In this document: positions 20,421 to 55,058 of the stretch, piece after piece
Numbering within the stretch: position 1 is the stretch's first letter
How the letters are laid out: each line of letters begins with the position of its first letter
NCBI GenBank assembly: GCA_022579005.1
Contig: MU401603.1
Span: 1-64,000, forward strand
DNA from: Poronia punctata
Taxonomy: Eukaryota; Ascomycota; Sordariomycetes; Xylariales; Xylariaceae
Length of the DNA: 64,000 bases
Direction: 5' to 3'
Notes under the pieces: generated by a model
The model's input: the letters and a program-made list of their open reading frames with translations, nothing else
Database searches by the model: none
What the model was told of the DNA's origin: nothing
Made by a program: the position numbers and the translations under genes

Positions 20421-21650
20421 GGCGAGAAATGTCTTCAACACAGCAGATAAAGAAGTACACCAAAGGAAGCGAGGGATCTTGAGCAAGGCGTTTTCCGTCA
20501 AGACTCTCCCCAACCACGCGCCGTTCATCATGTTCAAGCTTGAAGAGCTAGCGATTAAGCTGAGCGGTGGTGCGGTCCCGGCTCCCCCACGGTGATGAGG
20601 GGTCATGACGAGAATTAACCCTATTAACCCTATTAACCCTATTAACCCCAACCCTATCAAGATCTATATCGGATATCGCTAATCATCAGTATGCATGAAA
20701 AAGACGGGCCATGGATGGATCGCTTATGAAGAAACCCAGGTCGGATAGATCGTTCCTTTACGCATATACTCAAGGCTGCATACGCCCTGGGTAAGTATAC
20801 GAGGTACTATACCGAGAAGCATATCCAAGGACCGAGGCGAGGTCAAGGCCGAAAAGGAAGCTGTGAAGCAGCGCGGTTACAAGGATGTTCTGGACGACCC
20901 TATTAATAATAAGGACGACAAGACCGGATTTGTTCATAGTTTGAAGGAGGTTCTAAGAGAAGCAAGCCTTCTGGAGTGACCCTAGCGGTACCTAGCATAC
21001 AGGGGTGTTTCTGGAACCGACAGCTTGGCTCTATTATTTTCAGGCTCGAATACATCAACAACTGAAATCAACACCGCCATATTCTTCCTAGCGAGCCATC
21101 CACCCGTGCGCAAAAGACTGGAAAGTAAGCTCCTCAAATCCTTCCCCAAGCTCAACCAACATCCCCCTAGCACAGCCGAGAACCGTAATTACCTACGAGC
21201 TTGTCTGGACGAAGCCATGGGTCCCTGTCCATCCGTACCCTTAAGTATCCCTAGCGTCGTCGGCATCAGGGTGGTAGACGAAAAGATACCGGCCGGACTA
21301 GGCTAGGTATAAGTAAGAATCAATGCCTTACCTACTTCACCATCTTGCGCAACACGGAATATTTTCCATGGTCCGCGCGCGACTACCCCTATCTTCCCGA
21401 GCGCTGGGTCCTATATGAAAGGGAAAGAAGATGTCAAGACGACACGGGCGATAGTCTTTTAACCATTGACTCTCGGGCCACGATATTGTATCGCGCGGAA
21501 CTTGGTGCGCGAGATGACGTTCGTCGTGGCCCGCATCTTTTACCAGTTCGATGTCGATCGAGCCTGTTCCTCATAGTGGTGGACGCTCTACGGGGACTTG
21601 TTTGCCCAGCATCGGTATGAGGATTGCCCACTTCTTTCATGAGCAGTGGG
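20410..21650 (+). pseudogene. Shattered cytochrome P450 pseudogene
   Basis: P450 landmarks appear in the right order on the plus strand but in different frames with stops between them. A helix-C region starts near 20428 (NVFNTADKEVHQRKRGILS, then KAFS). A pre-I-helix region (20842-20976, containing KDVLDDP and LKEVLREASLLE) ends at a TGA. The I-helix lies at about 21050 (SGSNTSTTEINTAIFFL). The K-helix near 21210 reads DEAMGPCPSVP, so the invariant Arg of ExxR has become Gly. A PERW region is near 21400 (NTEYFPW...LPERW). The heme loop near 21460-21560 reads PLTLGPRYCIARNL with the cysteine codon at 21487. At least one old intron acceptor (TTTTCAG near 21050) may survive. A GGGTTAATA-type tandem repeat interrupts the middle. 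It cannot encode a working enzyme. It lies just upstream of the aminotransferase, so it may be a lost member of the NRPS cluster. Confidence 0.8.
20615..20656. repeat. 9-bp tandem repeat (TTAACCCTA)n, telomere-like
   Basis: Four near-perfect copies of TTAACCCTA followed by CCCCAACCCTAT lie inside the P450 relic. The unit resembles the common fungal telomere repeat CCCTAA with three extra bases. Confidence 0.7.
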
Positions 21651-21690: not shown

Positions 21691-21734
21691 TTAAGGTTAG
21701 GGTTAACCCGGAGGTTGGGTTAGGGTTAGGGTTG
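21691..21734. repeat. Interstitial telomere-like TTAGGG repeats
   Basis: GGTTAGGGTTAACCC is followed by GGGTTAGGGTTAGGGTTG, giving three TTAGGG units. The stretch lies just after the P450 relic and about 110 bp beyond the 3' end of the aminotransferase gene. TTAGGG is the usual telomere repeat of filamentous ascomycetes. The array is far too short to be a telomere. Confidence 0.65.
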
Positions 21735-21844: not shown

Positions 21845-23002
21845 TTATTCTTCACGGAGAGCCTTTGAGATCCCACCAAGCCCAAGTTCCAACTCCTCCC
21901 ACGTCGGCCACCCATACCCCAGTCTAAAGAAACTATCGTCCCTCTCAAACCAGCCTCCTCGCCCGATATATACCCCATGTCTCTCCAATAACCTCTTATA
22001 GAACGCCTCGATCCCCCCAGCCGGCTCTTTCCGAATTTTAATAAAGCACATCACGCCTGCCTCGGGCTTCACCCAATCAAGCCACTCTATCTCCTGGGCT
22101 ACCCAATCCGCCACCCGATCTCTACGCTTGCGCATATCGGGGATAGTCTCGGCCAGTAATTCCTCCCGACGACCCAGGATCTGCTCGGCAGCCAGCTCGT
22201 CGAGCACACTCCCGCTAATGGCGATCTGTTCCTTGGCAGCGAGGAATGCTTCCTGGAGATCAGCATTGGTCGAAATCAGCCAGCCGATACGTAGACCGGG
22301 AACGCCGTAGGCTTTGGATAACGAAGATACACTGATGACGTGGTCGCCTAGTGTAGCAGCGGACGTAGAAGAAGAATCTTGCGGGTATTTGAGCTCCGAG
22401 TACGTCTCGTCGACGAGGAGGTAACACCCCCTTTCCTTGGCCAGGGTCGCAAGAGATTGTAGTTCAGAGGGAGTACACATTGTCCCAGTGGGGTTATTGG
22501 GCGAACAGATACTGATGAGTTTCGTTATGCCCGGGCGGATGGCGGACGCGATACGCGCCACGTCAACCCGATACTGCGTTTCGTACTCCAGGTCCATGAA
22601 TGTGATGTCGCAGCCTACGGAGCGCGGGATCTCCAGGTTGGTGGCGTAGTTGGGACGAGTGACGATGACGTGGTCCTTGGGGCCGAGGAGGGCCGTCTTC
22701 ACGATGAAGAGGGACATTGAGGCGCCCCCCGTCACGAGGACATGGTCCGGGGTGATGGGACTGCCTGCGGCTTGGGCGACGAGACGGCGGATCTCGCGAC
22801 TTCCTTGATGCTCTGCGTAGGTGAGGGCGGCATCTTGCGGGAAGGTGATGGATAGGGATTTCAGGGTTTGGTCTGATATGGCGCTCTCGGAAAGATTGTA
22901 TTTGATCACGGCGCCGACTTCCTCGGGCGCCTCCTTCTCAATGGGCATTCGTTGGTAATTCATCTTGAATCGCTCAGGAAAAATTAGGCCTAGGAATTCC
23001 AC
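21845..23002 (-). CDS. PLP-dependent class I/II aminotransferase
   Basis: Single-exon gene of 385 aa. Fold-type I aminotransferases move an amino group between an amino acid and a 2-oxo acid, or carry out related PLP chemistry. Seen: the NNPTG motif with N170, D198 and Y201 in LVDETYSELKYP (cofactor ring contacts), the Schiff-base lysine K230 in SVSSLSKAYGVPG, and R238 in GLRIGW (phosphate contact), followed by a normal C-terminal small domain. The first Met at 23002 is used here; a second in-frame Met at residue 14 (MNYQRMP) is an alternative start. Transcription runs away from the P450 gene 2.4 kb upstream on the same strand. Proximity to the NRPS suggests it prepares or modifies an amino-acid building block, but some relatives act in primary metabolism. 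The substrate cannot be read from the sequence. Confidence 0.9.
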   Translation of the reverse strand: MEFLGLIFPERFKMNYQRMPIEKEAPEEVGAVIKYNLSESAISDQTLKSLSITFPQDAALTYAEHQGSREIRRLVAQAAGSPITPDHVLVTGGASMSLFIVKTALLGPKDHVIVTRPNYATNLEIPRSVGCDITFMDLEYETQYRVDVARIASAIRPGITKLISICSPNNPTGTMCTPSELQSLATLAKERGCYLLVDETYSELKYPQDSSSTSAATLGDHVISVSSLSKAYGVPGLRIGWLISTNADLQEAFLAAKEQIAISGSVLDELAAEQILGRREELLAETIPDMRKRRDRVADWVAQEIEWLDWVKPEAGVMCFIKIRKEPAGGIEAFYKRLLERHGVYIGRGGWFERDDSFFRLGYGWPTWEELELGLGGISKALREE

Positions 23003-25401
23003 AGTGGACTAGAAACAAGGGACGAGGTACAAGAATCTCTTCAAAGGATGTGTGAAAAGCCGATGAAAATAGGTAAAGAGTAAGAAGCCGGAACAGATGG
23101 AAATACCAGACAAAAAACTTCGGTTGAACGTGGAGCAGTATGGACAAGTATCTTGGATGGCCCCGCTACGTGTATATTATTAGGTATATGTACTTCGGAC
23201 ATGTGCTGTACACTCCTAGTCTACATACCTTATGGACAGGTACACCAATAGAGCAACTTGTGGATAGAATATACGGTAGCTAAAGATGATGTCGGTGCCG
23301 TACAAATGTCCCCCCGCTCTTTATTTTACCGCGTCTCTATTAACTACTCGTATCCTCAGCGTCCCACGTAAACAAACTGCGGGCGAGCCTGTTTGCTTCC
23401 TCCTTACCTACATCATAAGTCCCAGAGCTGCTTCCTCACTCTTATCAATACTCGCCCCGGAATGCCTCCGTAGTCCGTTGCTTAAAATAACTTTCCCCAA
23501 GCCCCGGTGCAATTTTACGTGTGGAGGGTTAGTAGAGTTAGAACTTAGAAGCTACCTATACGCAGGCGTGTACCGCCCAATATTACCTGAAGCTAACTTC
23601 CTTGAATAGAGCGGGCCCCGATGAGGCCGGCCCCCGGTAAGCGTATTTTTTATATGTGCATAACTACCTACCGTAGATCAGATGTTGTATCACTATCTGA
23701 TTACCTATTTGCATCCAGCCTTCGTTACCGAACATCACCATCACCTAGCCTAAACAGACAATAAATACGTGTAGTAGGTTACGCCTTCCCCTTGCCTTCA
23801 GCCGGTTTTGGCGGTCTCGGCGAAAGATTCCAGTCCGTTTCTCATCACACTTGGCTAGATTTCCCAGTGACAGCGATCGAGATCTACTCGTAGACGCCTA
23901 CGTACTCGTACTTCCCATAGAACTCGGCATGATTTTCTTTTTTTCCTAGCAAAACGTTCCACGAACACAAATATGTAACTAGGATAGCGGGATCTGGGAT
24001 CGCTCATCAATAATGATGTCATGAGTTGGCTAGCTGTCCATGTTCGTTGCAGCTCTGGTAGAAGAAAATAGATAGCACGTAGAATTCCGCAGGGCTAGAG
24101 TTTTATTGTCTCCTGGATCAAAGCAATCAAAACCTTTAGCGTTCCGAAATCGAAGACCTCAAAAAAAAAGTCCCCCGCGCTAAACCTAATCTAAAAAGCG
24201 GCACGTAACCACATTCTGAATATGAATGGGTAAAATACACATGGGCAAATACTATTGCCGCGTCACGTCATGCCATATTTGGGCGTCACATGTAGTCTAC
24301 GGTTAAGCTACCACGCTACCTACCTACACAGTACATATGTAGTCAATCTAAGCTCAAAGATGTGCACATGCATTGTGCAAATTCAGCCGCTCTGTATAAG
24401 GTGTTTCGGGAGATGATCTACTAACCCCAAACTAATAAGCTTGGCCGGATCCGTAAAGTGTGTACATGTCGTTATGTACATAGTAAGGTAGATACGACAT
24501 ACTCGTAAAAACTGGTCTGGAACGATTCTTTCTTTTTTCTTTTTGCTTGATACCTACTTACACACCCAGCCGCTTGGGTCTATGCCTGTTATTTCTTCAC
24601 CGCCTTAAATTCCATGTACGTAGTAAGTGGGCGCCGGGGCCCATCGAGAATTTTGGCTCTGGTAAGGTACCTCTTTACCCCATATTACTTACCGTGTTCC
24701 TAACGTACGTCTTTGGTGTGCCTGTCAGTTTTTTGCCGCTCCCGCTAATCGGACGTGGATCTCTTTAGTCTAACAATCTAACCTAATTCATGAATAAATC
24801 AGTGATCACAGCGCGTTACCGCCCCGATGGCAAACTATTAGCAAACTATTGCGCAGATCTCTTGCCTAATTCTAGCCTTCTATTGGGCTTGGCTGCCTGG
24901 TACCCCACACCACTTCCCGACCCCTTTTCTCTCACTTCTACACGTACGAGTAGATAGTGCACGTACCTTCCTATGCAGCCGCTCGTTGTGTGGGAATTGG
25001 GTGTGACGAATTAATTCTTGGTGTTTCAGGCCTTATAGCCATCCCTTACCGCAATCTGTACATTGCCAACTAATCTACTATCTTGTAGCCGCAGCATCCG
25101 AAATTGGGGTGGTGCTTGGAAAAGTATGCTACGTTCGAGTAGTATCTCTCTTTTTTTCACAGGCAAGCGATAATCAGAGGGATTGATGGATGGAAGAGGA
25201 GTTCACTGAAGCCAGTCTTTCTCGTACAGAAGGCTATATATTAAAGAGAATCAATGCTTTTCCTGTGCCCTGCTATGTGTTTATAATTCTCATAATGTCC
25301 TAATCGTAAAATATCGGTAGTGGTCAGATCGAACCACGAATTACCAAACCCCGCCGGCGAGTCGTCGACCCCCTTTTCATCCCGGCAATGTCGTTAATGA
25401 A
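23003..25401. other. Intergenic DNA between aminotransferase and P450 genes
   Basis: No gene is supported in this 2.4-kb stretch. It contains the aminotransferase promoter at its left end and the P450 3' flank at its right end. The octamer TACTCGTA/TACGAGTA occurs five times (23345, 23885, 23903, 24500, 24945). An 82-codon-plus frame at 23286-23609 has no motif and is ignored. Confidence 0.5.
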
Positions 25402-26961
25402 TCAACGCTCCTCAGCAACCTCTTGAAATTGGACTATACACTTGAGACCCTTGGGTACTGCGTCATGTGTGCTACACTGCTTCATCGACTCCGGAGTGGT
25501 CGAGCTCGTCATGGCAGTCTCATACCTGCTATACAAGTTCGCAACAAGAACTTTAATCTCCAATGTCGCTAGTGCCTTGCCCAAGCAAATTCTGGCACCA
25601 TACCCAAACGGAATGAGCTGGGCCTCGCGCATCTTTAGCCTAGCTGGGTCCGCGTCAAGCCATCTCTCGGGATCGAATCGATCCGGATTGGGGAAGAGAC
25701 GCTCGTCCTTATGAAGAGCTAGGATTGAAGCCGTGACGATGGTGCCTTGTGGGAGATAAACGCCGCTCAGGACATGGCCACCCTCGGGGACGATGCGCTC
25801 GGCCCGTCCACTCGAAGCCGGATATAGACGGTAGACCTCACGTAGACAAGCTTCGAGCGAGGGGACTTGCGTATCAATGTCTGAAAAGGACCACGAACCG
25901 TCGGGTTGGATGGGCAAGGCTTTCAGTTCCCTGCGTATCTTCCGTTGCCACTCTGGGGATTCTGTTAATTTCCAGATGAGATATGTCGCTGTCACGGCAA
26001 CGGTGGCCTCGGCGGCATTGATATTGTCGAGAATTTCGGCTGCGATGTATTCTCGGTCGAGCTGTTGATTTCTCTTTTCCCCTTTCTTTTCACTGAGCGC
26101 CAGGAGGTGTTGAAGGAGAGGTTGGAAAGTGCATGTGTCAGATGGCGCCTCCATCGCTGCCAGAGTTCGTTGCTTGCACCATGACGCGAGCTCGTCTTCC
26201 GCTCGGAGATACCGTAGGCGCGGAGAAAGCTTAGCTAAAAGGTAGGAGGCGTAGCGATAAGCGTTCGGATACTGTATGCGCCATGCTCCGACAAACTGTT
26301 GGCGCTTCAGAAGGGCGAGAATATCACGTTCGAGACAAGCAGATTCGACGGCATGAGAACCAAAGGCAGGACCGAGGATCAGGTGGGTGATGATATCAAA
26401 CCCGTACCAGTCTGTCAGGCTGTAGACGTCGACTGCCTGTCCATGTTGGATCTCCCGAAGGACTGCTCTGGAACGCTCTTGCACATGCTGTTCGATTTGT
26501 GGGAGCTTGTAGATAGTGGTAGGTTGATAAAAGGCCGAGATTAGCCTACGTTTTGCCCGGTGTTCCTCGTAGGGTCTGCTTGTAAAAACGGATCGCATGC
26601 CATATCCGACAAAGTGGTCAAAGTAGTTGCTCTTAGGCCATCGAAGGGTTGAGCCGTAAATATCTTTTATACTCTCTAGCGCTGCTACAGAGACCTCGTT
26701 CGGGGCGATATACACAACCGGGCCATACTGGCGATGCCATTCAAGAATATGCTCGTTTCGGCGAGCCAGTATGTCATGGCAAGCTAGAGGGAGACCGGAG
26801 AGCTTTGGTAGCCATGGCCCGGGAACATGACGACTGGACCTATAGCGGGGATAAAGTAAGGATGCAAGTGTGAGAAAGAATACGATTGCCGATGCGACCA
26901 TGAACCAAGTTCTGAAGAAGGGAAGCCAGTCCCGTACGAGTTCCAGCACTGCTGAGAGCAT
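25402..26961 (-). CDS. Cytochrome P450 monooxygenase
   Basis: Intronless gene encoding 519 aa, a normal length for a microsomal fungal P450. A hydrophobic N-terminal anchor (~18-37, WFMVASAIVFFLTLASLLYP) is followed by a Pro-rich hinge (HVPGPWLPKLSG). Conserved landmarks are intact: ExxR (EVYR at ~375-378), FDPERW (~429-434) and the heme loop FGYGARICLG with ligand C459. The I-helix is unusual: NAAEATVAVT (~315-324) places Ala directly after the acidic residue, where most P450s have the oxygen-activating Thr, with Thr one position later. The gene is divergent from the NRPS and shares its promoter region, and lies on the same strand as the aminotransferase. I infer oxidation of the NRPS product or a precursor. 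The reaction is unknown. Confidence 0.93.
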   Translation of the reverse strand: MLSAVLELVRDWLPFFRTWFMVASAIVFFLTLASLLYPRYRSSRHVPGPWLPKLSGLPLACHDILARRNEHILEWHRQYGPVVYIAPNEVSVAALESIKDIYGSTLRWPKSNYFDHFVGYGMRSVFTSRPYEEHRAKRRLISAFYQPTTIYKLPQIEQHVQERSRAVLREIQHGQAVDVYSLTDWYGFDIITHLILGPAFGSHAVESACLERDILALLKRQQFVGAWRIQYPNAYRYASYLLAKLSPRLRYLRAEDELASWCKQRTLAAMEAPSDTCTFQPLLQHLLALSEKKGEKRNQQLDREYIAAEILDNINAAEATVAVTATYLIWKLTESPEWQRKIRRELKALPIQPDGSWSFSDIDTQVPSLEACLREVYRLYPASSGRAERIVPEGGHVLSGVYLPQGTIVTASILALHKDERLFPNPDRFDPERWLDADPARLKMREAQLIPFGYGARICLGKALATLEIKVLVANLYSRYETAMTSSTTPESMKQCSTHDAVPKGLKCIVQFQEVAEER

Positions 26962-27999
26962 TGTTGACCAGCGACAGTATAGAGAGTAGCCGAGCTCGTT
27001 CTGCTTCTACCTACCTAGTATCTGGTGGAAACAGAATAGAAAACGATGTACTTATAACCAAGATGCCCGCCTGGCTGCCTCCCTCGACCATATTCTTGCT
27101 CCGTGACGCCATCTTGGTGACTTTACCATATAATATAAACCATGCCGAATCAAGTAGGCTCGGTTCTTACCGCAGCAGGTTACGGTGTTACCAAGTCAAA
27201 CACTTGACCGCACCACAGCGATCTATTTTGCTGCGAGACACCAGAGCCTCGGGACTCCGGGAGCTATTGAATGCCACCGTACAAAAGACCCGCTAAAACA
27301 AGATCACAGCCCCAGATCAAGTCACCATGTGTACCATGTGTATCGAGGTCGGTCGTACTAGGTCGTGCTACCGGCTGGATGTTATATTTGGTTGTGGTGG
27401 ACCCCAAACTACCGATCCGCACCCAAAGACCGAAGGTGGGACATACAGAGTACCTACATACATTTATACGTCATTTTAAGTAACAAGAATACAATTTGTA
27501 TAGTACGGGGCAGGTACGAGTAGTAATTATTGAATCTTAGCTTGCATCAAAAGCCACCGAAGATGGCTTACGAGTAGATTTAAGGCAACCGCAGCTCGCT
27601 CAGGTTGTGCATATGAGTAGGTAGGAGGTAGGTAGTCATACCTACCTTCAGTTCGCAATTGCCATGTCTACCAAACTTGGCACCTTTGGTATGCCGCATG
27701 CGCCTACCTAGTAGAATTATGGAGGGCCATTGCAGGTTACGAGTAGATATGGTACCTTACGTATGTACATCACCGGGAATCCTATACAGAGCAAAGATCT
27801 ACGTCCGCACTAGGTACTCGTATGTTGTGGCTGGCGGACAACTTCCCGGGTATCAATTGATACCTAAAACGCCCGGTTTCTCTTATACCTTGTACCACCC
27901 GCGGTAACGATGCCTCGAACGGCAGGAAATAGAATGTTCATTTTCTTCATTCTCTGAGATATACCAGGTAGTTTTCATCAAGATCATTCCACCGCTGCA
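26962..27999. promoter_or_regulatory. Shared divergent promoter of the P450 and NRPS genes
   Basis: The P450 start codon (minus) and the NRPS start codon (plus) face away from each other across 1,038 bp with no supported gene between them, so this DNA should serve both promoters. Four copies of TACGAGTA/TACTCGTA occur within 310 bp: 27515, 27569, 27738 and 27815. CCTACC/GGTAGGTA words are also frequent (27618-27650). Whether a regulator binds them is unknown. Confidence 0.55.
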
Positions 28000-30900
28000 A
28001 TGCAAACCACCAACATCAATATGACGCCCGAACACCTAGAACAAATCTGGGATTGGAATAACACCGTCCCAGCACCAGTAGAGCAGCGTGTTTGCGATTT
28101 GATTGAAAAGAGAGCTCAAGCCCGTCCCGATGCTCCCGCTATTTGCGCCTGGGATGGGCAGTTGACCCACGGTGAACTGAGCCGGCTTGCTACCAAGATA
28201 GCATCGAGCCTCGTCGACCTCGGGGTTAAACAAGATACCTTCGTCCCTTTAATGTTTGACAAGTCCATGTGGACTACTGTTGCCCTCGTCGGGGTCCTCA
28301 AAGCCGGCGGTGCCTTTGTTCTACTTGATCCGTCTCTTCCAGAGCAACGCCTGCAAGGCATCATCACACAGCTCAAGGCCAGTGTGGTCTTAACATCGAC
28401 TACTCATCATGAGATGGCCTCTCGGCTGGCACAAACCCCACTTGTTATCGACTGGAACTTCTTTCCGACGACTGGTCTCGACAGCCTCGAGGATACCAAC
28501 CAGCAAACCATGCCTAATCCAGCCACTCCGGATTCGTTAGTCTATGCAGTCTTTACATCAGGGAGCACCGGTGTGCCAAAGGGCGTCCTCATAACTAACA
28601 CAAATGCTGCTTCGGCTCTCTCCTATCAAACAAAGAATATAGGCATCAGCGAGAATTCACGGATATTTGATTTTGCATCGTACACTTTCGACGTCTCAGT
28701 TAGCAACATCCTCTCCACTTTAAGTGCCGGCGGCTGCTTATGCGTCCCCAGCAATGAAGACCGCAGCAATAATCTGGAACAAAGCATTGCATCTATGAAA
28801 GCCACTGTAATAGACATCACACCCTCGATTGCCCACGTTCTATCACCAGAGAGGATACCTACAGTCAAGACACTTATTTTCGGAGGAGAGGCCCTGCATC
28901 TCCGGGATGTCGAGCGCTGGTGGGGAAAGGTGCAGATCATCCACATCTACGGGCCTTGCGAATGCACACCGGGCAGCACAATCAACTACGGTAACGACGG
29001 TGCCGTGAACCCAGAAGAGGCCGTTCATGTCGGAAAAGGCGTGGGGCTGGTGGGCTGGATAGTCGATCCGGAAGACCACAACAGGCTCGTGCCACCAGGA
29101 TCCCCCGGCGAGTTGTTGCTCGAAGGCCCACTAGTTGGTCGGGGGTATCTGGGTGATGCGGCCAAAACTGCGGAAGCCTTCATCCGGGACCCTGTATGGC
29201 TGCTTCGCGGCTCTTCAAAGCACCCTGGGCGCCGTGGAAGGCTTTATAAGACGGGCGACTTGATGCGATACACTAAAGAGGGGTACCTGCAATATGTTGG
29301 CCGGAAGCAGGCCACCCAAGTTAAGATTCGAGGTCAGCGGCTTGAGCTGGGGGAGATTGAGAGCACACTTCGTAACCATGCCGGTGTAGATGACGCTGTT
29401 GCCGTCATATATCGCCAAGACGGCCAGGAAGCCCACCTTGTCAGCTTTGTGACCTTGCGTAAAGCTGCAGTCGAGGAGCGGTTGGAAGAACCCGGTGAGA
29501 ATCATGTACTAGGAAAAAAGGAGAAGAACAAGGCCCGAGACGAGCTGTATGCTATGCTAAAGTCTCAGCTCCCGGCCTTTATGGTCCCCCAAGCGATAGA
29601 AGTTCTAGACAGTATGCCTCTTAACAGGAATGGCAAGATTGACCGGCTGGGCCTCGTTCAGGGCCTGAAAGAACGCCGAGCAGCGCTACGAGACACTGGC
29701 TCCGTGCGGCGGCCAACCACGGAACCACAGCGGCAGATGCAGGATATTTGGGCAAGAGTGCTGGGCCTCGAAGCTTCCACGATCGGATTGGACCACAGCT
29801 TCTTTCAGCTGGGCGGCAGCTCGATCTCGACTATGAAATTAGTGACGGAAGCTCGGAAGGTGGGCATGGAAATTACCGTCGCCGACATATTCCGGCATCC
29901 GGTGTTACATGAGTTGCTTAATCAGGTCCGTCATGAAGCTCTGGTTGACCAGCCTTGGCGCTCCATTGCGCCATTTGCGCTCTTGGATGTTGGCGGTGAT
30001 ATCGATGCGGTCCTTGGGGACATCTGCAGTCAGTACAAGCTGGGTCATGGGGATAACCGCACGGATATAATACTTGATGCCTATCCATGCACGGCCCTTC
30101 AAGAAGGTCTAATGTCCCTGACGGACATGAACGAACGGTCTTATATCGGGCAAAACATACTTGAATTGTCTCCTGAGATATCAGTAGAGAAGCTACGGGC
30201 AGCATGGGAGCAAGCAGTCCAGCAGCTGCCGATTCTACGCACCAGAATAGTCCAGCATGACCGCCTCGGTCTTATCCAGATCGTGGTCGACACGCCTATG
30301 CACTGGATCGAAGCAGATTCCTTGGACGCCTATCTCGACTCGGATATCGAGCAGCGCATGGAGCTGGGCCAGCCACTTGCGCGCTATGCTCTGGTCAAAG
30401 ATGGCAAGGGCGCCCCCAAGTGGTTTGTATGGACTGCCCACCACGCAATATACGACGGGTGGTCGGTGCCACTCGTCTTGAACACTGTACAAAGTATCGC
30501 GCGCGATGAAGAAGTCCAACAGGGACCGCCGTTCCAAACCTTCATCAGATATATCAAGGATCGGGACGAGGAGATGATGGACTACTGGCGCCGGGCTCTC
30601 GACGGCTGCCAATGTACTCCCTTCCCCAGTCTTCCACCGCACACTGAGCAACCGAGTCCAGATAGGTCGACCCAGCATTCCTTCCCTCTGTCCCAGAGCA
30701 GTCACATGGGCGTGACGCCAAACTTGATGATCCGCGCTGCGTGGGCCTTGCTTGTTGGTGGGATGAACAATACGGAAGACGTCGTCTTTGGCGCCACGTT
30801 GTTCGGAAGAAACGCACCGGTTGCCGGCATCGAGTTGATGACGGGTCCGACGTTTGCAACGGTGCCCGTCCGTGTCAAGTGGGACAGTAGTGACAAGGTT

Positions 30901-33900
30901 ATGGATTACCTGAATGCGGTGCAGGAACAAGCAACGGGCATGATTCCTTATGAGCAAGTAGGTCTGCACAAACTTGCTCAACTCAGCCCTGGAGCACGAC
31001 AAGCATGCAGGTTCCAGAGCCTGATGGTTGTGCAGCCACCGGCCAATGGGTCCTCCGATATGTTTGGCCTGTGGAGGGACGAGCTGGATCGAGGAAGCTG
31101 CCAAGGTACATACGGCCTGATGCTTACTGTTCAACTCGGGGGGGATGAGGTAATGGTTAGAGCTATGTTCGACTCGCGGATGATAGATCCATGGCTGGTA
31201 AACCGACTCCTGAGACGATTGGAGCATGTGGTCTCCCAGCTAGAGAAGGCCAGTCCGGAACTATCCCTTTCCGAGGTCGAAACGACGACGGCCGAAGACC
31301 TGCAACAGATGTGGAAATGGAACCAGGCAGTTCCCGCAGCCACGGAACAGTGTGTCCACCACATGATCGAGTTGAATGCTCAATCCCAGCCCGATGCTCC
31401 TGCTGTGTGCGCGTGGGACGGGGAGTGGACATACGGCCAGCTCGACGACGCGGCGACGCGGTTAGCACATCATCTAGTGGGCCTCGGTGTCGGACCAGGC
31501 AGGCTTGTAACTCTCTGCTTTGAAAAGTCGCGCTGGATGCCAGTAGCCGCGCTCGCGGTCATGAAGGCTGGGGGAGCGTCAGTGGCAATAGACTCGACCC
31601 AACCAGAGGAGCGCCTTCGCACAATTGTGCAGCAGACGGGCTCCAAGCTGGCTCTTTTGCTGTCATCATCTGCCAACCGCGAGTTGGCGAGTCACTTGAC
31701 CAGTCAACCAGTGGTCGTAGTCGACGAGAGCTTGCTAGACACACCGAGACCAACACATGCAGCAGCAGCAGCAGCTGTAAACCTCCCGTCGGTGACTCCA
31801 TCTGATGCGCTCTACATCGCCTTCACGTCGGGTAGCACTGGGGTGCCCAAAGGTGCTGTCGTTACGCATTCCAATTTCAGCTCCGCCGTCCACCATGTGC
31901 GCACCTCCGGTACTACCAAGTTCGAGCCTACGGCGAGGGTATACGACTTTGCCTCTTACGCGTTCGACATGTCCTGGTTTTCCGTCTTGCAGTCCCTTTC
32001 AAACGGCGCCTGTCTATGCATTCCTTCGGAAGCTGATCGAAGAGATGACATTGTGGGATCCGTCCAGCGGCTACGAGTTACATATGCCGTCTTGACACCA
32101 TCAACCGCAGAACTCTTACCCGCCGAGACGATCCGGAAGCTGCAGACGCTGATGCTGGCCGGCGAGGCGCTGCAACCCCGGTTAGCAAAGCGGCTAGCCA
32201 GATTGACACATGTCATCAACGCATACGGTCCCTGCGAATGCACACCTTTGGCCACCGCCGCCGCCATCGACGACGACACAGGTGTCGTTGTGCCCGGTAT
32301 AGGCAGGGGTGTAGGTGTCAACACATGGGTAGTGCAGGTCTCGGACAGCAACCGCTTGGCCCCTATCGGCGAAGTTGGTGAGTTGGTGCTCGAAGGCCCC
32401 ACCGTAGGCTCTGGTTATCTGGGCGATGCCGAAAAGACGGCGACGGCCTTTATCCGGGATCCGGCCTGGCTTGAGCGTGGCGCACCCGGTCATCCTGGTC
32501 GTCAAGGGCGCCTGTATAAGACGGGCGATCTGGTGCGATACAGCCCTGACGGCACCCTAGTTTTCGTCGGACGTCGAGAGGGCTCACAAGTGAAAATCCG
32601 CGGGCAGAGGGTCGAGCTAGGAGAGGTGGAGCACTACGTCCAAGCCTGCATCCCATCGGCTAGACAAGTGATTGCCGAGGTGATTATGCCTACCGACGGC
32701 GAGGGCCAGAAGAGACCGACACTGGCGGCATTCCTTGCCGTGGACGATCAAGGGGGCCCATCGACGGCGGTTCAAGTCATGAAAGTCGAACCCGACGTGG
32801 AGCATGAGATTTTCAAACGCCTGCCGGTCTTCATGATTCCAACCGTCTACTTCTCACTCAACAAGCTTCCGCTCAACAGTTCTGGAAAAATAGACCGGCG
32901 TCGTCTGCGCGAGGTTGGCTCCGACTTCAGCCTCCAACAGCTCGTCGACCTGCGTGATGCGTCCTCCCTCGGCGGAAACAAGCGTGTCCCAGCTACCGAG
33001 ACAGAGCGTACCCTTCAACAGATATGGGCTCGCGTGCTCAGCATCGACCCTGCTAGCATTGGCGCCGATGACAGTTTCTTGCGTCTGGGTGGCGACTCCA
33101 TCACAGCCATGCAGGCATCAGCAGCTGCACGACGGGTTAACCTGGCCATGACAACAACGGACATCATGCGCAACAAGACCATCGCCATGTTGGCCGAATC
33201 TTCCTCGGCCACACAGAATCGGCTACTCGACGACGTGGACACATCTGGTGCCGAGGAGGACAGCCCGATATTTGATTTGAGCCCGATCCAGCGTCTTTAT
33301 GTAACGGTACAGCCCGATCCAAAGTGGTGTTTTGACCAGAGCTTTTTCCTGAAGCCGCGCGAGCGCATCTCCCTAACCAGCTTAACAAAGGCTATCGCCA
33401 CGATTGTCTCGATGCATCCTATGCTACGGGCTCGCTTTGCTCAGGCGAGTCCGGGCCGGTGGAAGCAACGCATTGTGGGCGATATACATACATCCTTCCA
33501 TCTTTGCGAGGTGCTTAGCACAGGTTCCATCAGTAAATCGACAAAGGCGGGCGATGTGCGCCGATGTCGCGAAAGGCTCAACATCCAGACGGGCCCTCTT
33601 CTTGCGGCTGTGCTATTCGACGATAGCGAAGGCCAGAGTCTATTCATCACAGCACATCATCTGGTCATTGACCTCGTCTCCTGGCGCATCATTCTTGAAG
33701 ATCTCGAAGGCCTTTTGACTGGACAACAAGTCCCCTCGGCTCCCGGGACTAGCTTCCGGACATGGTGCTCACTTCAAGAACAATATGCAGTCAATCACCT
33801 CCAATCCCCGGAAGTGGCATCGGTCTCAGTCCAGCGGCCTTCTACATCCTCGTACTGGGGCTTGGATATGCGAGAAAACGTGCAGGCAGCAACTTCAACG

Positions 33901-36900
33901 AGACAGTTTGTGCTCGATGAGGCGTGCAGTGCCGCGATTATGGGCGCCTGTAATGAGGTATTCAACACACGGCCAGTCGAACTTATGATCGCAGCTCTGG
34001 TTCATTCTTTCTCCGTCGTCTTCGTAGACCGACCTACGCCCACGGTATTTACCGAAGGCCACGGTCGCGAGCCATGGGATGACCGAATCGACCTCTCCCG
34101 CACCGTGGGCTGGTTCACCACCATCTTCCCTGCATTCAAGCCAGACGGAACAACCACTGTGAATTTGCTGGACGCTATACGGCAGGCCAAGGACTGTATC
34201 AGGAGCCTGCCGAAGAACGGATGGTCGGATTTTACTTGCAAGTTCGCAGATGAGGACAAGGCCGCGTCTAGTGCCTCCGACTTCCCCGTCGAGGTCTTGC
34301 TCAACTTCGCCGGCTCTTACCAACAGCTCGAACGCGATGGCTCGTTCTTTGAGACCCTTGCAGAAGCCGAGTGCTCCCCTCCGGATTCCTGGTCGAAGCT
34401 GCGCCGTCTCGCACTCTTCGAACTCAATGGCCACATGGATAGAGGTCGGCTCGCCATGTCCCTCGATTATCCCAATGGCGTGCACCACAGGGACCTGATG
34501 GCAGTTTGGATGGACACGTTTAAAGCTGCATTGACGGATCTGAGTAGGCTACTGAGGGACAGGCCGTCGGAATGGACCTTATCCGACTTTCCCATGGCTT
34601 TCACCTCATACACCGACATTGGCGAGTTCAAGTCTGCTGTGATGCCCCAACTAGGCATAGCGAGTCTGCAAGAAATCGAGGATATCTACCCCTGCAGCGG
34701 CTTGCAAGAGGGCCTGCTCGTTGCCCAAGGCAAGTCGTCCGGAAATTATCGGGTTAAGCTCGATTTCGAAATCATAGCCACCCAGGCTCCTGGTGACTAT
34801 GTTGACCTGGCGAGGATCGAGCGGGCTTGGGCCGAGGTCGTGCGACGACATGGGCTCCTGCGTGCCGTGCTGGTGGACATGATGCCCGGAACCAACAGGA
34901 CGATGCATGTTATCTTGAAAAATTATACACCTAGTATTTCCTACGACCATGTCGCAGATGGAGAGCACGGGTTGAGTGTGAAGTATAATAAGTATGAGCC
35001 CCAGCACCACTTGTCGCTCTCGAGGACGGACGAGAAGCATGCCAATCTCTGCTTTGAGGTGAGCCATGCCATTCTGGATGGGCATTCCACGGGCGTGTTG
35101 ATCCAGGATTTCTGGAAGGCATATGACGGGTCACTTAGGTCAGATGGCCCGTTGTATGGGGACTTTATAAGATACCTGGAGACACGTCCACGGGATGCTG
35201 ATGGGGAATTCTGGGTCAACTACCTGGACGGTGTGTACCCATGTCTGTTCCCAACCCTAGGATCAGCAGCAAAGGAGCAGACAGGGGATTTTACAGTCGT
35301 GGTGCCGGGACTTGACGGATCTGGGATCCATGACTTCTGTTCCAAGTGGGAAGTGACAGCAGCTTCGGTCATCCAGACCGCATGGGCCCTGGTGCTGCAT
35401 CATTACACGGGCAGCGCCTCTCCCTGCTTTGGAAACCTGGCATCTAATCGCCACGTGCCTGTTGACAGGATTGGGGATATGTTTGGGCCCCTTATTAGCA
35501 TGATTCCCTATCGTGTGCATCTTGGCCGAGACCAGTCCGTCCTTACGACGCTGCGGGAAGGGCAAACTAGCTTTCTCAACAGCCTTTCACATCAGACCCC
35601 ACTAATGGAAATTCAGGAAGCCCTTGATGTAGGCGCATCGGGGCTTTTCAATACCATCCTGAGCTTTCAACGTGATACCAAGCAGCCCAGCCAATCCGCA
35701 GATGGACATGTCATACAGGAGCGAGGGGGTTACGACCCAGTAGAGGTAGGTATTCCAAACACTCTCGACCAAAATGAAATGGTGTGAATATGATCAAGCT
35801 GACGGGGGGTTTTTTTCTCTCCACTTTTAGTACCCTATTTCCCTAGCCGTCTGTGATGGGGGTACGGACGTGTCCATTGAGCTGAATTGCAAAGCTGGCT
35901 TCATTGTAAAGCATGAGGCTGAGCGGGTGGCGAGAGCGCTAGGAACCACTGTGCTCTCACTCATCAGCAACCCCGACGGGAAAGTCAGCAATGTGAACAT
36001 TTTAGCAGAGGATGACTTGGAGCAGTTATGGGCATGGAACTCGGAGGTTCCCAGAGCAGAGGAGATGCTTGTGCACAGCCTCGTAGAAGACCAAGCCAGA
36101 CGGCGACCCGATGCGGCGGCGGTTTCTGCATGGGACGGCGAACTGACGTACGAGGAGCTAGACAAGCTTTCGAATCATGTTGCACAACACGTGGCATCCA
36201 TGGGCGTTGCGCCCGGCTCTTTGGTTCCCCTGTGCTTTGAGAAGTCGGTGTGGACGCCTGTGGCTGCGCTCGGTGTGCTCAAGGCTGGCGCCGGCTTTGC
36301 ACTTCTCAGTCCCTCGCTCCCTGAGCAGCGTCTCGGGACGATGGTGCAGCAGCTAGAAGCGGACGTCATCTTATCTTCATGCTCGAACATGGATCTCAGC
36401 TCGAGTCTGCTACAGACGGTTGTCCAGGTGGGACCGGAGTCGGCTAGTGTCCTCGAATCGACGACGAAGGAGGAACAGAGGGCGGGTACCGGGACCCCGT
36501 CGGCGCCAATGTATGCTGTCTTCACATCGGGAAGCACAGGCACGCCAAAGGGCGTGGTACTGACACACGGCAACTTCTGCTCCGGTTTGAAGCACCAGTC
36601 GCAACTCCTAGGCTTCAACCAACATTCCCGAGTTTTCGACTTTGCGTCGTACGCATTTGACCTCTCGGTTCACAACATGTTCACCACACTTGCTACAGGA
36701 GGATGCTTGTGTATCCCATCAGAAAAGGATCTGCGCGATGACATCAGCGGGTCCATGGCGGATTTCAAGGCCACACTCGTCGACCTAACGCCGTCGGTGG
36801 CGCGTCTCATAGATGCAGCTACCGTACCTGAACTCGAAACCATAATTCTGGCTGGAGAGGCCGTCTCCGTCGATGACGCGAAGCGGTGGTGGGGCAAGGC

Positions 36901-39334
36901 ACGTATTGTGAATGGCTACGGACCTGCTGAATGCTGCAACCTCAGCACCGTGAACTGGCGGCAATCTTGCGCCGAGCAGGTCACAAGTATAGGCAAAGGA
37001 GCCGGCACAGTTACTTGGGTTGTCGACCCCGAAAACCATGACCTGCTGCTGCCTCCCGGATGCATCGGCGAGCTCCTCATTGAGGGGCCCCTGGTTGGCC
37101 TTGGCTACCTAGGTGACAAGAGCAAGACCGATGCAGCCTTTATCGAGGACCCGGCATGGCTACTCGCCGGTCTCGCGGGTAAGCACTCGGGCCGACACGG
37201 TAGACTCTACAAGACAGGCGACCTGGTACGGTATAACCCGGATGGCAACCTGGTGTTTGCAGGCCGCAAGCAGGATGCTCAAGTCAAGATCCGCGGACAG
37301 AGGGTTGAACTAGCCGAGGTCCGACACTGGGTGCAGGAGTACATGCCAGAGGCATCCCAGGTTGTGGCCGACGTTATTAAGCCGCAAGGGGATGATGATA
37401 ACTCGCTCCTCGTCGTATTCCTACAACTCACTGACACGCCAACAGAAGGGGATGAGCTTGATGCTACTGTCAAAGCCCTTCCTGTCCCGGCCGAGGTGGA
37501 AGGCAGGCTGGCCAAACATCTGCCAAGCTACATGATCCCCTCGGTTTTCTTCCGCCTGTCCAGTCTCCCGATGACGGCAACAGGCAAAACCGACCGTCGA
37601 CGGCTGAGGCAAATAGGAGACCGGTTTACCATCGAGCAGCTTGCGGAAGTGCGGACAGCGGGATGCGGACACAAGCGACAGCCAACCTCGGAAGCAGAGC
37701 GGACGATGCAGAACATATGGGCCAAGGTCTTGAATCTTGACGCAAGCACGATTGGCTTGGACGATAGCTTTTTCCGCCTCGGTGGCGACTCTATTTCATC
37801 CATGCGGCTCGTTAGCGAGGCTCGCAAGCTTCGCATGAATGTGACGGTGGCAGATGTTTTCCGCCACGAGACCCTTGAAGCATTGGCGCGAGGGCAGAAC
37901 CTGGATGGGTCTGGGGGGGCTGTCGGTCAACCTAGCGAAGCAATCACCATCGATCCCGATACGAGGAAAGCTCTGCTTGGGGAGATCGACTCTATGGACA
38001 TAGGTCTCCGCTCTGGCGATGTTGCGGACATTCAGCCTGTGACCAGCGTTCAGGAAAGGTGCTTTGCAGAGGGAATCTATCCCGTAGCCTGCCTCGGGGA
38101 GGACGGAGTCGATGATGCGACGACATGCGGACGCTTTGCCAACTATATTTACCTGGATTTAGCCGCAGATGTCGACGTCTCTCTCTTGGACAAGGCCTGC
38201 ATTCAGACCCTGGACAGGTTTCCCATTCTTCGTGCTTGTTTCCTGTGGCTTCAAGGCAAGGTTTGGCAAGTCGTGCTCGATAAAATCAAGAATCCTCTCC
38301 GCGTTCAGGATGTCAGTGAGGATCTTGATGCAGCCCTCCACGACTACTGCCTCGGTGATGCTCACGCGGCCTCCCCAACCCAACCTCCTCTATCTGTAGT
38401 GCTACTTAGACGCAAGGGGCACGGGATGCGCCTCGTGATTCGCATCTCCCATGCCCAGTATGACGGCGTTTGCCTCTCCACCATCGTTGAATCGTTCGTG
38501 ACTGGCAATGACGTGGCAAGCCCTGCGCCCCCGCTGTTCTCCACGTTCCTGTCGTATGCATCCCACCGACGGTCCGAGTCTCTGTCTTACTGGACAGAGT
38601 TGCTGCGAGGGTCACGCCCTACTGGCCTACGCCAACAGCTTCTGGCGCGTAGAGGTCTCGACAAGCCGCAGTTGAAGGCAATCCAGCTTACCGCAGAGAC
38701 AAAGCTTCCCCGCCTTCCAAACAAGATCACCCCAGCAACTCTAGCAAGCGCTGCATGGGCGCTGCTCCTATCACGCCTGACCGGCCAGGACGAGGTCGTC
38801 TACGGACACCTAGTAGCAGGCCGCAACTCGGCAATTACAGGGGTCGAGGAGATCGTCGGGTGCTGTGTCGACTTTGTCCCCGTCCGAGTAAAGCAGCTCA
38901 CATCGCCATCTCAGACGCCAGCAGGTCTCTTGCAATCCGTACAGGATCAGTTCCTCGCCATTGGGGAAGCAGACTCTCTTGGATACAAGGAGATTGTACA
39001 GAAGTGCACCGACTGGCCGGAAACCGATGGGTCAGCCGTCTTCGAGTCTACAATCCAACACCAGAACATTGACGAGAACCCGGATATTCAAGTTCCTGGT
39101 GGCGGCACATCGCGCCTGCAATTCTTTCAAAACCCACATACGGTTCCCATGTCCGTACACATGGTCTCTTATACTAAGGGCGATACGCTCTTCTTCGAGC
39201 TCGCGAGTAATACTCACGTGATGGCTGATGAGACGGCTCGGGCTATGGTGGACGGATTGGTCCAGATTATTCAGAAGTTTGATATTGATATGGTTACAGA
39301 ATTGTCATCTTGGATGAAGGATATGCGTTTTTAA
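28000..39334 (+). CDS. Trimodular nonribosomal peptide synthetase, A-T-C-A-T-E-C-A-T-C
   Basis: Two exons, 28000-35745 and 35831-39334, give 11,250 nt and 3,749 aa. The 85-bp intron (GTAGGT...TTTTAG) restores DPVE-YPISLAV, a normal condensation-domain strand. Domains by approximate residue: A1 30-530, T1 570-640 (Ser608 in LGGSS), C1 690-1090 (HHAIYDG at 814), A2 1100-1620, T2 1665-1735 (Ser1700 in LGGDS), E 1755-2190 (HHLVIDLVSW at 1886; EGHGRE at 2019), C2 2225-2630 (SHAILDG at 2355), A3 2645-3150, T3 3200-3270 (Ser3236), terminal C 3316-3740 (SHAQYDG at 3455). All three A domains keep SGSTG, YKTGDL and the catalytic GK(I/T)DR lysine. The layout predicts a tripeptide with a D residue at position 2, released by the terminal C domain, which in fungi usually cyclises. 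No thioesterase or reductase is present. An alternative in-frame Met lies at residue 8. Confidence 0.95.
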
Positions 39335-47892: not shown

Positions 47893-48080
47893 TAACAAGT
47901 CTAATAAGGCTTGTTATATAATATATAGTTAGAATTAGAACTAGGCTTGTCTATTAAACAAGACTTGTTAAAGAAATAAAACTTATTTAGGAAATAAAAC
48001 TTGTTAGACTTGCTAAGCTAAATAAGACTTGTTAAGCAAATAAAACTTGTTAAAAAAACAAGACTTATTAAGCTTATAAC
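47893..48080 (+). repeat. Left border repeat of the right AT block (AACAAGACTTGTTA family)
   Basis: Six or more copies of AA(C/T)AA(G/A)ACTTGTTA-like words are packed here, for example ATTAAACAAGACTTGTTAA near 47953 and AATAAAACTTGTTA near 47993 and 48040. Together they resemble, in reverse complement, the words at 63545-63636 on the other border. Confidence 0.6.
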
Positions 48081-51000
48081 TAAAATAAAGCGTTTTAATT
48101 AGCTAAATTTAAAAAAGTAAAGCATTATAATTAAATAAAAATTTAATTAAAGCAAACTAGCTCTAGCTTTTAATTAGTTATATATAGTTATATATATAAA
48201 ATAATTATAGTTTTAAAAATAAGTACTAGTATTGCTTCTTTATAACTTAAGTTGCTTTATCTTAAATAAATTAAAGGTTATAAATATATTTTTAACTTTC
48301 TTTTTTATTTACTTTTATAAATACTTATATATCCTTTATTCTCTTATTTTTTATTTTCTTATTATTAAGTACATTTTCCTATTTTCTTTTTTTTCTTATT
48401 TTTTATTATTAAGTATATTTTTTTACTTTATTAATAACTATTATATTATAGCTTATAACTATTATAACTTATATTTATTACTTATTATTATAACTTTAAA
48501 TTTTTGCTTTTATAAGTTTAATAGCGTTAAAAATATATTTTACTTATTTTAAGTTAATTATATTTTACTAAGTAAAATTAAGTAAATTTACTTGCTATAA
48601 TATAAGCAGCTAATACTACTAAATATTTAATTGCTAATTTTTAAATTATAAATAATAAAAGTTTTAATTAACCTAAACAATGCTAACACTATTAATATTA
48701 ACTATATATATTTGCTAAAAATAAATAATAGTAATGCTAATAATAACACTATTAAGTTGCTTAGCTATAACTTTAAAATTAAAAATAAAGTTATAATTAT
48801 AAGTATAGTTAATAAGTATTATAATAATAAAAATATAATAATTATTAAAGTTGTTTAAAACAAAAATATAATTAATATAGCTAAAGTAATAGTTATTATT
48901 ATAAGTATACTTAATAAAGTTGCTAATACTAAATATAAACTTATTATTTATAGCTTTAAAAGCGCGTTGCTTACTATTATTAGCATTTTTTTATAAATTT
49001 TATTTTATAATATAATTATAGTTAAAAGTACTAACGTAAGCTAAGTAAAATATAAGTAAAAGCACTAAAAAATAAAAGTTAAAATAATAGTTAAAACTTA
49101 CTTATTTATAAAAAAAAACTTATAAAACTATTAAATAACTTTATTTTAAAATATAGTAAAATATAGCTAAAGTTTATTATAGTTTTTTTTATAAGCTAAT
49201 TATAATATATAATAAAATTATAGCTTTACGTTAATATTAGTATAAACTAGTAAATAAGCACTACTATTAGCTAAATAAAGTAAAAACTTTTTAATTTTAA
49301 CTAAAAAAATATAATTAATAACACTTAAGTTAATATAAAACGTATTAGCTAACTAGTTAATATTTAGTTTAAAATTATTATTTTTAAGTAAGTTAGTTAA
49401 GTTATTATAGTTAGCTTATAAAAAAACTTTATTAAAAAGGCTTAAGTATTATTAGTATAAAAAAAGTATTTTTTAAGTTAAATTAAAATTATTATATAAA
49501 AACATATTATATAAAACTAAGCATATAGTTTTTTAAAAGTTTATTTTTATTAGCAGTACTTTTTTTATATTAAAATAATTAGTTTTATATACTTACGTTT
49601 TAAAATACTTAAAGGTATAAGCAATATTAGCTTATATAAAAATTACTATATTTAATTATAAAAAAATAAAAAAGAAAAAAATAAATAAAAATAAAAAAGG
49701 GTATATAAAGCGCTAAAATAAAAACTTTATATATATAATAGTTATATAAAAATATAAACCTAAGCTAATTAAATAATAGCCCCTAGCCTTTTAATATTTA
49801 TATAAAGTTAAATATAATTATTTTTTATATAATAATATAACTAATATATTTTAAACTTATAAAAACCTTTTAAAATAGCAAAATATTTTTAAAATAAGCT
49901 AAAATAGCACTAAAAATATAATAACTTATTAATATAAATTTTTTTTAATTAATATATTATAGTTTACTAGCAGCGCATACTTTTTTATAATAGCTAAATA
50001 GTATATTTTAACGTAAATATTAAGCTATAGCATATTATTTAAATATTATAATAAACGTACTAAATTACTACTTTTAAAGTTATTAAAAAGTTTGTTTTTA
50101 GCTATTATTAGGCCTAAAAAGCTTGCTACTAAGCTAGCAAGTAAATTAGCAACAAATTTAGCAACTAACTTTACTATAAATTTTAATACTAAGTTTTTAA
50201 CGCTTATAGTAGCATATATATAAAGCTAATTAAATATATATTAAGCTTTATAAATAATTAAACATATATTATTATAGTTAGCTTTAAACACTTTTTTTTT
50301 TATTAAAACAGTATTGCTTTTAGCAATAATAGTATAAGTTTTAATAATTAAATTAATAAAATCTTAACTTATTTTTTAAGCTACGTATTAGAAAAACTTA
50401 AGCTTAATATAACGCTTTTTAAGCTAATATTTAAAAAATATAAAAATAACTATAAACTACTTAATATAATTAAATATTTTATAGCTTACAAAATAATAAA
50501 TAAAAAACTAAAAACATAAATAACTAAAAAAAAACTTTTAAACTTAAATTTTTAAAGCATATTTAGTATAAGCTACTTTTATTAAAATGTTATTTTATAA
50601 TAAAAAATATATAAAGTTAAATATACTATTATATTTTAAGTAAGCTATATTAAAAAAATAACTTATAATAAACTTTAACGCTAAAAATATACTAACTAAT
50701 AAAAGCTTAAAGTTTGCTATACTTTATTGCTTACTATACTTAGCAATAATAAATATAGTTTTTAGTTAATTTTTTATTATTTTTTATATTTTAATAGTTT
50801 ATATATAAAAGCAACTTTAAATAACAATATTAAATTTTAAAAAGCTATTAAAATTACTAGCTTTTTAACTAAAGCACGCATAGTATATATAATAAAAATA
50901 ATAAGCTTTTAAACCTTTTAGTTTAAAGTTTTTTGCTTACTAAAGCATATTTTTAATATAATATATAAAGAAAACATATACTTAAACTTTTTTATTATTA

Positions 51001-54811: not shown

Positions 54812-55058
54812 TTATTATAATTAGGTTATAAAGAAGGCAAGGCTTTTAAAGGTAACTTGATTTATTGTTAGAAATCTAAAAGTAAAAAGAAAAAAAAAAA
54901 AAGCTTTTAAAATCTTGTTTAGTGTATAGACTTAATATGTGCTTACTATAGTAGGTTTGCACCTATTTGCAAGTATAGGTTTTAGTACGTACTGTTTAAA
55001 AAAAGTAATAGCTATAAGCTACTTAATTAGCTATATTATTATTAACTAATTTATAACT
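54812..55058. repeat. Left LTR
   Basis: Starts TTATTATAATTAGGTTATAA and ends TTTATAACT. It aligns over its whole length with 61369-61616. Nearly all differences are C/T or G/A transitions plus one single-base A-run indel. Shared unmutated words include TGTGCTTACTATAGTAGGT and TTAGTACGTACT. Confidence 0.85.

What the first reader, a model, noticed from the sequence alone, without database searches (positions are those of the whole stretch)
21845..39334. Candidate secondary-metabolite cluster: trimodular NRPS with aminotransferase and divergent P450
An intact 3,749-aa NRPS, a P450 sharing its promoter and a PLP aminotransferase lie together between unrelated primary-metabolism genes. Domain order predicts a small tripeptide with a D residue at position 2 that is then oxidised. 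I cannot tie the combination to a known product from the sequence. It is the best candidate for an undescribed system in this window.
Basis: partly seen in the sequence, partly recalled or inferred. Interest (0 to 1): 0.75.

Follow-up and report, generated by a model that had tools for sequence, protein, structure and literature searches.

The report
Horizontally acquired fungal peptide synthetase cluster
A dung fungus carries an intact three-gene factory for a small, probably ring-closed peptide of unknown structure, and the genes look as if they came from an Aspergillus/Penicillium-type mould.

Summary
The window is a contig of the ascomycete Poronia punctata with an intact 3,749-aa NRPS, a divergent P450 and a PLP enzyme of aminotransferase fold (AT) between housekeeping genes. 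NRPS order is A-T-C-A-T-E-C-A-T-CT; the last domain's nearest solved relatives are the cyclising CT of TqaA. All three genes recur together in Aspergillus udagawae (79/80/85% identity). P450 and AT of these kinds share a contig (judged by equal contig length) in 20 cases, A. udagawae included.

In trees Poronia falls with Eurotiales for all three proteins, and inside them for NRPS and P450, so horizontal acquisition is the best reading. The Poronia copies then evolved fast but stayed open. Four of nine module-2 specificity residues, invariant in ten orthologues, changed.

Best model: AT and P450 make or modify a building block; the NRPS joins X1-(D)X2-X3; CT releases it, probably by cyclisation. 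Substrates and product are unknown. A1 resembles arginine/ornithine-type codes (recalled); AT is nearest to an uncharacterised enzyme and to arginine-cyclising enzymes, but misses their cut-offs and some active-site residues. New member of a known kind; an arginine-derived building block is the boldest reading left open.

The parts
28000..35745 (+). NRPS exon 1 (A1-T1-C1-A2-T2-E and most of C2)
35746..35830 (+). NRPS intron (GT..AG, 85 nt)
   Evidence: the spliced protein aligns to P0002 without a gap of 12 or more residues except at the N-terminus
35831..39334 (+). NRPS exon 2 (end of C2, A3-T3-CT)
28057..29664 (+). A1 (approximate bounds), 9-residue code DVSDIGIPG
29722..29934 (+). T1 carrier domain (LGGSS), approximate
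30067..31311 (+). C1, HHAIYDG, approximate
31333..32919 (+). A2, code DMFVMAAPL (DIFIMAGPI in ten orthologues), approximate
33001..33201 (+). T2 carrier domain (LGGDS), approximate
33277..34569 (+). E epimerisation domain, HHLVIDLVSW, approximate
34621..35944 (+). C2, SHAILDG (spans the intron), approximate
36032..37654 (+). A3, code DLHDIAGNL, approximate
37682..37879 (+). T3 carrier domain (LGGDS), approximate
38072..39319 (+). terminal CT domain, SHAQYDG; nearest solved relatives are TqaA CT
25402..26961 (-). cytochrome P450, 519 aa, FGYGARICLG haem motif
21845..22963 (-). PLP enzyme of aminotransferase fold, 372 aa, nearest to 3op7/GntC
26962..27999 (.). intergenic region between P450 and NRPS, possible bidirectional promoter (not tested)
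   Evidence: position only

Best explanation
An intact, horizontally acquired secondary-metabolite cluster of three enzymes. Shown by sequence: an A-T-C-A-T-E-C-A-T-CT NRPS, a P450 and a PLP enzyme of aminotransferase fold, together here and in A. udagawae. Inferred mechanism: the P450 and PLP enzyme act as a pair on a small substrate, most likely an amino acid, and supply or modify a building block; A1 loads X1 (arginine/ornithine-like by its code, recalled), A2 loads a hydrophobic X2 that the E domain turns to the D form, A3 loads X3; CT releases X1-D-X2-X3, probably by an internal attack that closes a ring, as TqaA's CT does. The Poronia lineage received the genes from a Eurotiales-type fungus and has since changed the module-2 pocket.
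For: Intact frames and catalytic motifs. CT: the four best of 16 PDB sequence matches are TqaA, E 1e-29 to 2e-27. Linkage: A. udagawae NRPS, P450 and AT rows share contig length 232,822; Conoideocrella NRPS and P450 have consecutive tags QQS21_001906/001907. Distances of the two proteins correlate, r 0.62 for these 20 pairs plus the window, 0 of 2000 shuffles as high. Transfer: window nested inside Eurotiales rows for NRPS (holding the three Eurotiales rows plus unnamed P0019 together without the window is rejected, AU p 1.7e-5) and P450 (p 0.011); AT with A. udagawae, P. atrosanguineum and one unnamed row (100/94), joining it to the two Xylariales rows rejected, p 3e-4. A TPR gene on the same contig is the only match in the assembly, against a contaminant contig. 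A2 pocket: 4 of 9 code columns changed against 17 of 250 other invariant A2 columns, one-sided Fisher p 0.003.
Against: No product, substrate or expression data. The code-to-substrate step is recalled, not computed, and PMC6737921 reports that substrate prediction for its fungal A domains tended to fail. Metarhizium and Conoideocrella have linked NRPS and P450 rows while none of the 120 listed AT rows is named for them, so the AT may not be indispensable to this NRPS type. The AT lies 2.4 kb from the P450. P. fimorum's listed AT (P0166) is not the orthologue: holding it with the window, A. udagawae and P. atrosanguineum is rejected. The fast Poronia branch could mean relaxed constraint. Equal contig length on chromosome-size contigs (8 of the 20 over 300 kb) shows only the same chromosome. 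The ten orthologues of the A2 test are related (five are Metarhizium), so they are not ten independent witnesses.
Confidence: 0.6

Rival explanations
1. The P450 and AT make an arginine-derived building block (cyclised like enduracididine/capreomycidine, or cleaved to a guanidino fragment as in fusaoctaxin B) that A1 or A3 loads.
Against: GntC and VioD curated cut-offs are missed by about half; GntC S26, N52 and H250 are Ala, Tyr and Ile here; 3op7, equally close, carries only a generic name; Fgm1/Fgm3 sequences could not be compared.
Confidence: 0.22
2. A fumiquinazoline-type line: anthranilate, D-residue, third residue, closed by CT.
For: Same domain order (recalled for TqaA/FmqA) and TqaA-like CT; the A. 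udagawae orthologue is named NRPS 12, the number of FmqA in A. fumigatus (table in PMC6737921).
Against: A1 keeps Asp235 and DVSDIGIP in all 11 sequences compared, against an anthranilate code without that Asp (recalled).
Confidence: 0.05
3. The P450 oxidises the finished peptide and the AT is an unrelated neighbour.
For: NRPS plus P450 without a named AT row in Metarhizium and Conoideocrella; 2.4-kb gap.
Against: AT with the other two genes in A. udagawae; AT-P450 pairing in 20 cases and correlated distances.
Confidence: 0.2
4. A decaying relic: fast evolution and a changed pocket reflect loss of function.
For: Relative-rate tests with the nearest outgroup: 494 window-only against 122 A. udagawae-only changes in the NRPS, 81/9 in P450, 34/7 in AT; with farther outgroups 276/132 and 300/77, 51/21, 24/9. 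The N-terminal extension of about 107 residues in A. udagawae is absent.
Against: No stop in the NRPS (11,250 nt), P450 or AT frames; active-site motifs kept; of nine domains with testable invariant columns eight keep 92-100% and T2 86% (CT had none to test).
Confidence: 0.12

Closest known systems
TqaA / FmqA (tryptoquialanine and fumiquinazoline synthetases)
   Same: Trimodular A-T-C-A-T-E-C-A-T-CT order (recalled) and homologous CT with the SHxxxDG region
   Different: A1 code has Asp235 and is not anthranilate-like (recalled code); partner genes are a P450 and a PLP enzyme
GntC, L-enduracididine cyclase (8fft/8ffu; PMC10367076)
   Same: Nearest curated model and, tied with 3op7, nearest solved structure of the AT; E9 and S25 matched
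   Different: 215.6 bits against cut-off 415; S26, N52 and H250 not kept
VioD / OrfR capreomycidine-type cyclases
   Different: 181.9 bits against 390.9; the second of two serines is Ala
Fusaoctaxin B starter pathway Fgm1 (P450) + Fgm3 (PLP lyase)
   Same: Fungal P450 plus PLP enzyme beside NRPS genes, acting on arginine (PMC10967133, PMC6389888 passages)
   Different: Different NRPS system; no amidohydrolase match among the 14 window ORFs given to Pfam; sequences not compared
Orphan orthologues in A. udagawae, P. fimorum, P. atrosanguineum, Conoideocrella, Metarhizium
   Same: About 57-79% identical NRPS, the lowest value from a partial record; P450 row of equal contig length for A. udagawae, P. 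fimorum, P. atrosanguineum, Conoideocrella, M. acridum and M. album; same A1 code but one residue
   Different: Poronia A2 code differs; Metarhizium P0007, P0008, P0010 and P0023 lack 281-300 residues of A3

Membership tests
Fungal cyclising NRPS of TqaA/FmqA kind | terminal CT domain homologous to TqaA CT | tested here: met
   the top four PDB matches are TqaA
Fungal cyclising NRPS of TqaA/FmqA kind | three modules with E after module 2 | tested here: met
   (domain order of TqaA recalled)
Fumiquinazoline synthetases | A1 anthranilate code lacking Asp235 | tested here: not met
   Asp235 in window and ten orthologues; the anthranilate code is recalled
GntC | NCBIfam NF041364 cut-off 415 bits | tested here: not met
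   215.6 bits
GntC | active-site E9, S25, N52, H250 | tested here: not met
   alignment, read by eye: S25 kept, E9 by ungapped extension; N52 to Tyr, H250 to Ile
Capreomycidine synthase VioD | TIGR03947 cut-off 390.9 bits | tested here: not met
   181.9 bits
Fgm1/Fgm3 arginine-cleaving pair | orthology to Fgm1 (CYP625A1) and Fgm3 | not testable with these tools
Horizontally transferred cluster | all three genes placed with donor-group sequences against taxonomy | tested here: met
Horizontally transferred cluster | contig is not a contaminant | tested here: inconclusive
   TPR gene of the same contig has no second match in the assembly, the 722-aa ORF only weak partial ones; P450 record named Poronia punctata with contig length 97,671; flanking genes could not be placed taxonomically

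The most novel reading that the evidence does not exclude
The P450 and the PLP enzyme are a conserved, horizontally mobile fungal two-enzyme unit that hydroxylates arginine (or a relative) and then cyclises or cleaves it, a eukaryotic counterpart of VioC/VioD and GntB/GntC built on a P450, and the NRPS seals the new residue into a cyclic tripeptide; Poronia has retuned the D-residue pocket.
Probability: 0.2. Interest if true: 0.62.

Novelty: new member of a known kind. Interest (0 to 1): 0.42.

Why it matters
It ties an orphan NRPS family found in two fungal classes to a P450/PLP enzyme pair that recurs across ascomycetes and to which I found no assigned reaction. A natural experiment comes with it: relatives with and apparently without AT, with and without a complete A3, and one lineage with a changed A2 pocket, which makes the role of each part testable by comparison of products.

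Tried and rejected
Fusaoctaxin Fgm1/Fgm3 identity: suggested by PMC10367076, but PMC6389888 gives Fgm3 as 75% identical to a protein annotated 2-isopropylmalate synthase and Fgm1 as CYP625A1, so membership was left open. Trichoderma PCA cluster (PMC12855858): the word aminotransferase does not occur in its main text, rejected. Specificity-code look-up in papers found nothing. A search for bacterial relatives of the AT confirmed five loci of 22 stretches, best 42%, and was not followed. Composition: GC3 of NRPS 0.61 and AT 0.66 lies near that of four neighbouring genes (0.63-0.68), P450 0.55 lies below; I take no support for transfer from it. The first code extraction over all hits picked a wrong FD motif and one search stopped with an error at A3; corrected. 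The first P450 clade tests held together Xylariales, and Xylariales with other Sordariomycetes, that are themselves scattered in the tree, so cleaner tests replaced them. A tblastn look for relics gave a weak P450-like match at 21148-21549. CT columns could not enter the invariant-column test, as no CT column was invariant in eight or more orthologues.

Full report
WHAT IS THERE. The window is bases 1-64000 of a 97,671-base contig in an assembly of 45.05 Mb and 573 contigs. A protein record 97% identical to the P450, on a contig of the same length, is named Poronia punctata, a xylarialean ascomycete (recalled). Between AT-rich blocks (about 1-5 kb and 48-64 kb, 14-25% GC over most of their length, TpA/ApT 1.4-1.7) lies a gene island. 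In it: the NRPS 28000-39334 with one 85-nt intron, 3,749 aa; a P450 on the other strand, 25402-26961; an AT, 21845-22963, also on the minus strand. The longest stop-to-stop ORF in the gap between AT and P450 is 109 aa (not scanned for domains). One copy of this P450 and one of this AT were found in the assembly; the next matches by score are 27-31% and 32% identical.

NRPS ANATOMY. Order A1-T1-C1-A2-T2-E-C2-A3-T3-CT. Motifs: LGGSS/LGGDS/LGGDS in the carriers, HHAIYDG (C1), HHLVIDLVSW (E), SHAILDG (C2), SHAQYDG (CT). The CT's best solved relatives are TqaA structures 5dlk, 5ejd, 5dij, 5egf. What CT does here, cyclising release, is inferred from that kinship.

SPECIFICITY. Nine code positions were read by motif anchoring to GrsA numbering (numbering recalled). 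A1: DVSDIGIPG here, DVSDIGIPT in ten of ten other orthologues. A2: DMFVMAAPL here, DIFIMAGPI in ten of ten. A3: DLHDIAGNL here; A. udagawae, P. fimorum and P. atrosanguineum begin DIHDIAA, Conoideocrella DLFIITA. In A2 4 of 9 code columns changed against 17 of 250 other invariant columns (one-sided Fisher p 0.003); in A1 1 of 9 against 15 of 253 (p 0.44); none of the ten orthologues, taken in turn, departs alone at an A1 or A2 code position. I read this as a retuned pocket for the D residue; it is one lineage, the ten orthologues are related, and the changes are conservative, so the substrate may be a close analogue. That A1's DV-DIG with Asp278 resembles arginine and hydroxyornithine codes is recalled.

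RELATIVES AND LINKAGE. Of 3,727 NRPS hits, 4,309 AT hits and 238 P450 hits the best 120 each were listed. I took equal contig length as a sign of one contig and joined the lists (118 NRPS, 119 AT, 119 P450 rows). NRPS and P450: 7 matches (A. udagawae, P. fimorum, P. atrosanguineum, Conoideocrella, M. acridum, M. album and, with a P450 only 39% identical to the window's, Claviceps maximensis). NRPS and AT: 3 (A. udagawae; P. fimorum, with a paralogous AT; an unnamed 28,642-b contig with an AT 56% identical). AT and P450: 21, one of them (2,025 b, different sources) set aside as chance; of the other 20, three lie on contigs of 6,108 b or less and 8 on contigs over 300 kb, where only the same chromosome is shown. 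No length occurs twice within a list. One Fusarium record joins both in 839 aa (P0319). Pairwise distances of AT and P450 correlate: r 0.62 (20 pairs plus the window), 0.77 without the P. fimorum pair, 0.70 on 11 pairs from contigs of 110,952 b or less plus the window, each with 0 of 2000 shuffles as high; shared ancestry alone could add to this.

A3 AND AT. In the Metarhizium proteins P0007, P0008, P0010 and the partial P0023, 281-300 residues of A3 are missing (P0009 was not in that alignment and P0022 ends earlier); Conoideocrella's A3 shows YRPSAC where the window and Eurotiales have YGPAEC. None of the 120 listed AT rows is named Metarhizium or Conoideocrella. AT and a complete A3 may thus have been lost together, which would point to A3 as user of the AT's product. 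This is a lead: many AT rows are unnamed, and gene models may be wrong.

HISTORY. NRPS tree (14 rows, 2,160 columns): the window sits with A. udagawae, P. fimorum and P0019, P. atrosanguineum outside that group at 100/100; holding the Eurotiales rows and P0019 together without the window is rejected (AU p 1.7e-5), as is joining the window to Conoideocrella and Metarhizium (p 2e-87). P450 tree (21 rows): same nesting, p 0.011 against a window-free Eurotiales group; joining the window to any of three xylarialean sets is rejected (p 3e-4 or less). AT tree (40 rows): window with A. udagawae, P. atrosanguineum and an unnamed row, 100/94; joining the two Xylariales rows is rejected p 3e-4; adding P. 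fimorum's listed AT to the Eurotiales group is also rejected, as that row is a paralogue. The groups were chosen after I had seen the identity lists. Identities of 79-85% between fungi of different classes fit transfer; loss in many lineages is the costlier alternative. The window copies changed faster than A. udagawae's in all three proteins, with frames open throughout.

PAPERS. Passages only: PMC10367076 (abstract and outline too), PMC7010643, PMC10967133, PMC6389888, PMC6563249, PMC6737921, PMC5088523, PMC11457142, PMC12855858 (abstract and outline too). The others were seen as search listings. My ten searches named no product for this gene set; they cover open-licence papers only.

VERDICT. 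Observation confirmed; a real and probably functional cluster, a new member of a known kind, with an unassigned enzyme pair and a well-supported transfer.

Noticed in passing
L026/L027 (own genome C94:9001-27000): A second Poronia NRPS, 53% identical over A1, with code DVCDIGLPN, and a 584-aa ORF that looks like a carbamoyltransferase by my reading between its pieces.
   Followed up: partly
window 21697-21731: Three TTAGGG units close together just 3' of the AT gene, an interstitial telomere-like stretch (sequence).
   Followed up: no
window 21148-21549: Weak P450-like fragment on the plus strand, 24% identity, E 6.6e-4, possibly a pseudogene.
   Followed up: no
window 1-5000 and 48000-64000; contig 92000-97671: Blocks of mostly 14-25% GC with raised TpA/ApT and lowered (CpA+TpG)/(ApC+GpT), as left by repeat-induced point mutation.
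   Followed up: partly
protein P0011 (ENA contig of 28,642 b): A related NRPS with a 417-residue insert in A1 that reads to me like an N-methyltransferase (none in its precomputed Pfam list) and extra N-terminal sequence; Metarhizium and Conoideocrella rows keep a 28-30 residue insert at the same place.
   Followed up: partly
Metarhizium proteins P0007, P0008, P0010, P0023: The first half of A3 is missing in the same region across species; in P0007, P0008 and P0010 the rest of the protein is conserved.
   Followed up: partly
window P450 25402-26961, I-helix: 79 of 120 listed P450s match a NINAAEAT-type I-helix pattern; in the window and its near relatives printed no acidic residue stands directly before the threonine, unlike the more distant P0344 and P0360.
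   Followed up: partly
window 25402-27112, minus strand: The deposited Poronia P450 model uses an upstream exon near 27008-27112; orthologues instead match the single-exon start at 26961.
   Followed up: yes
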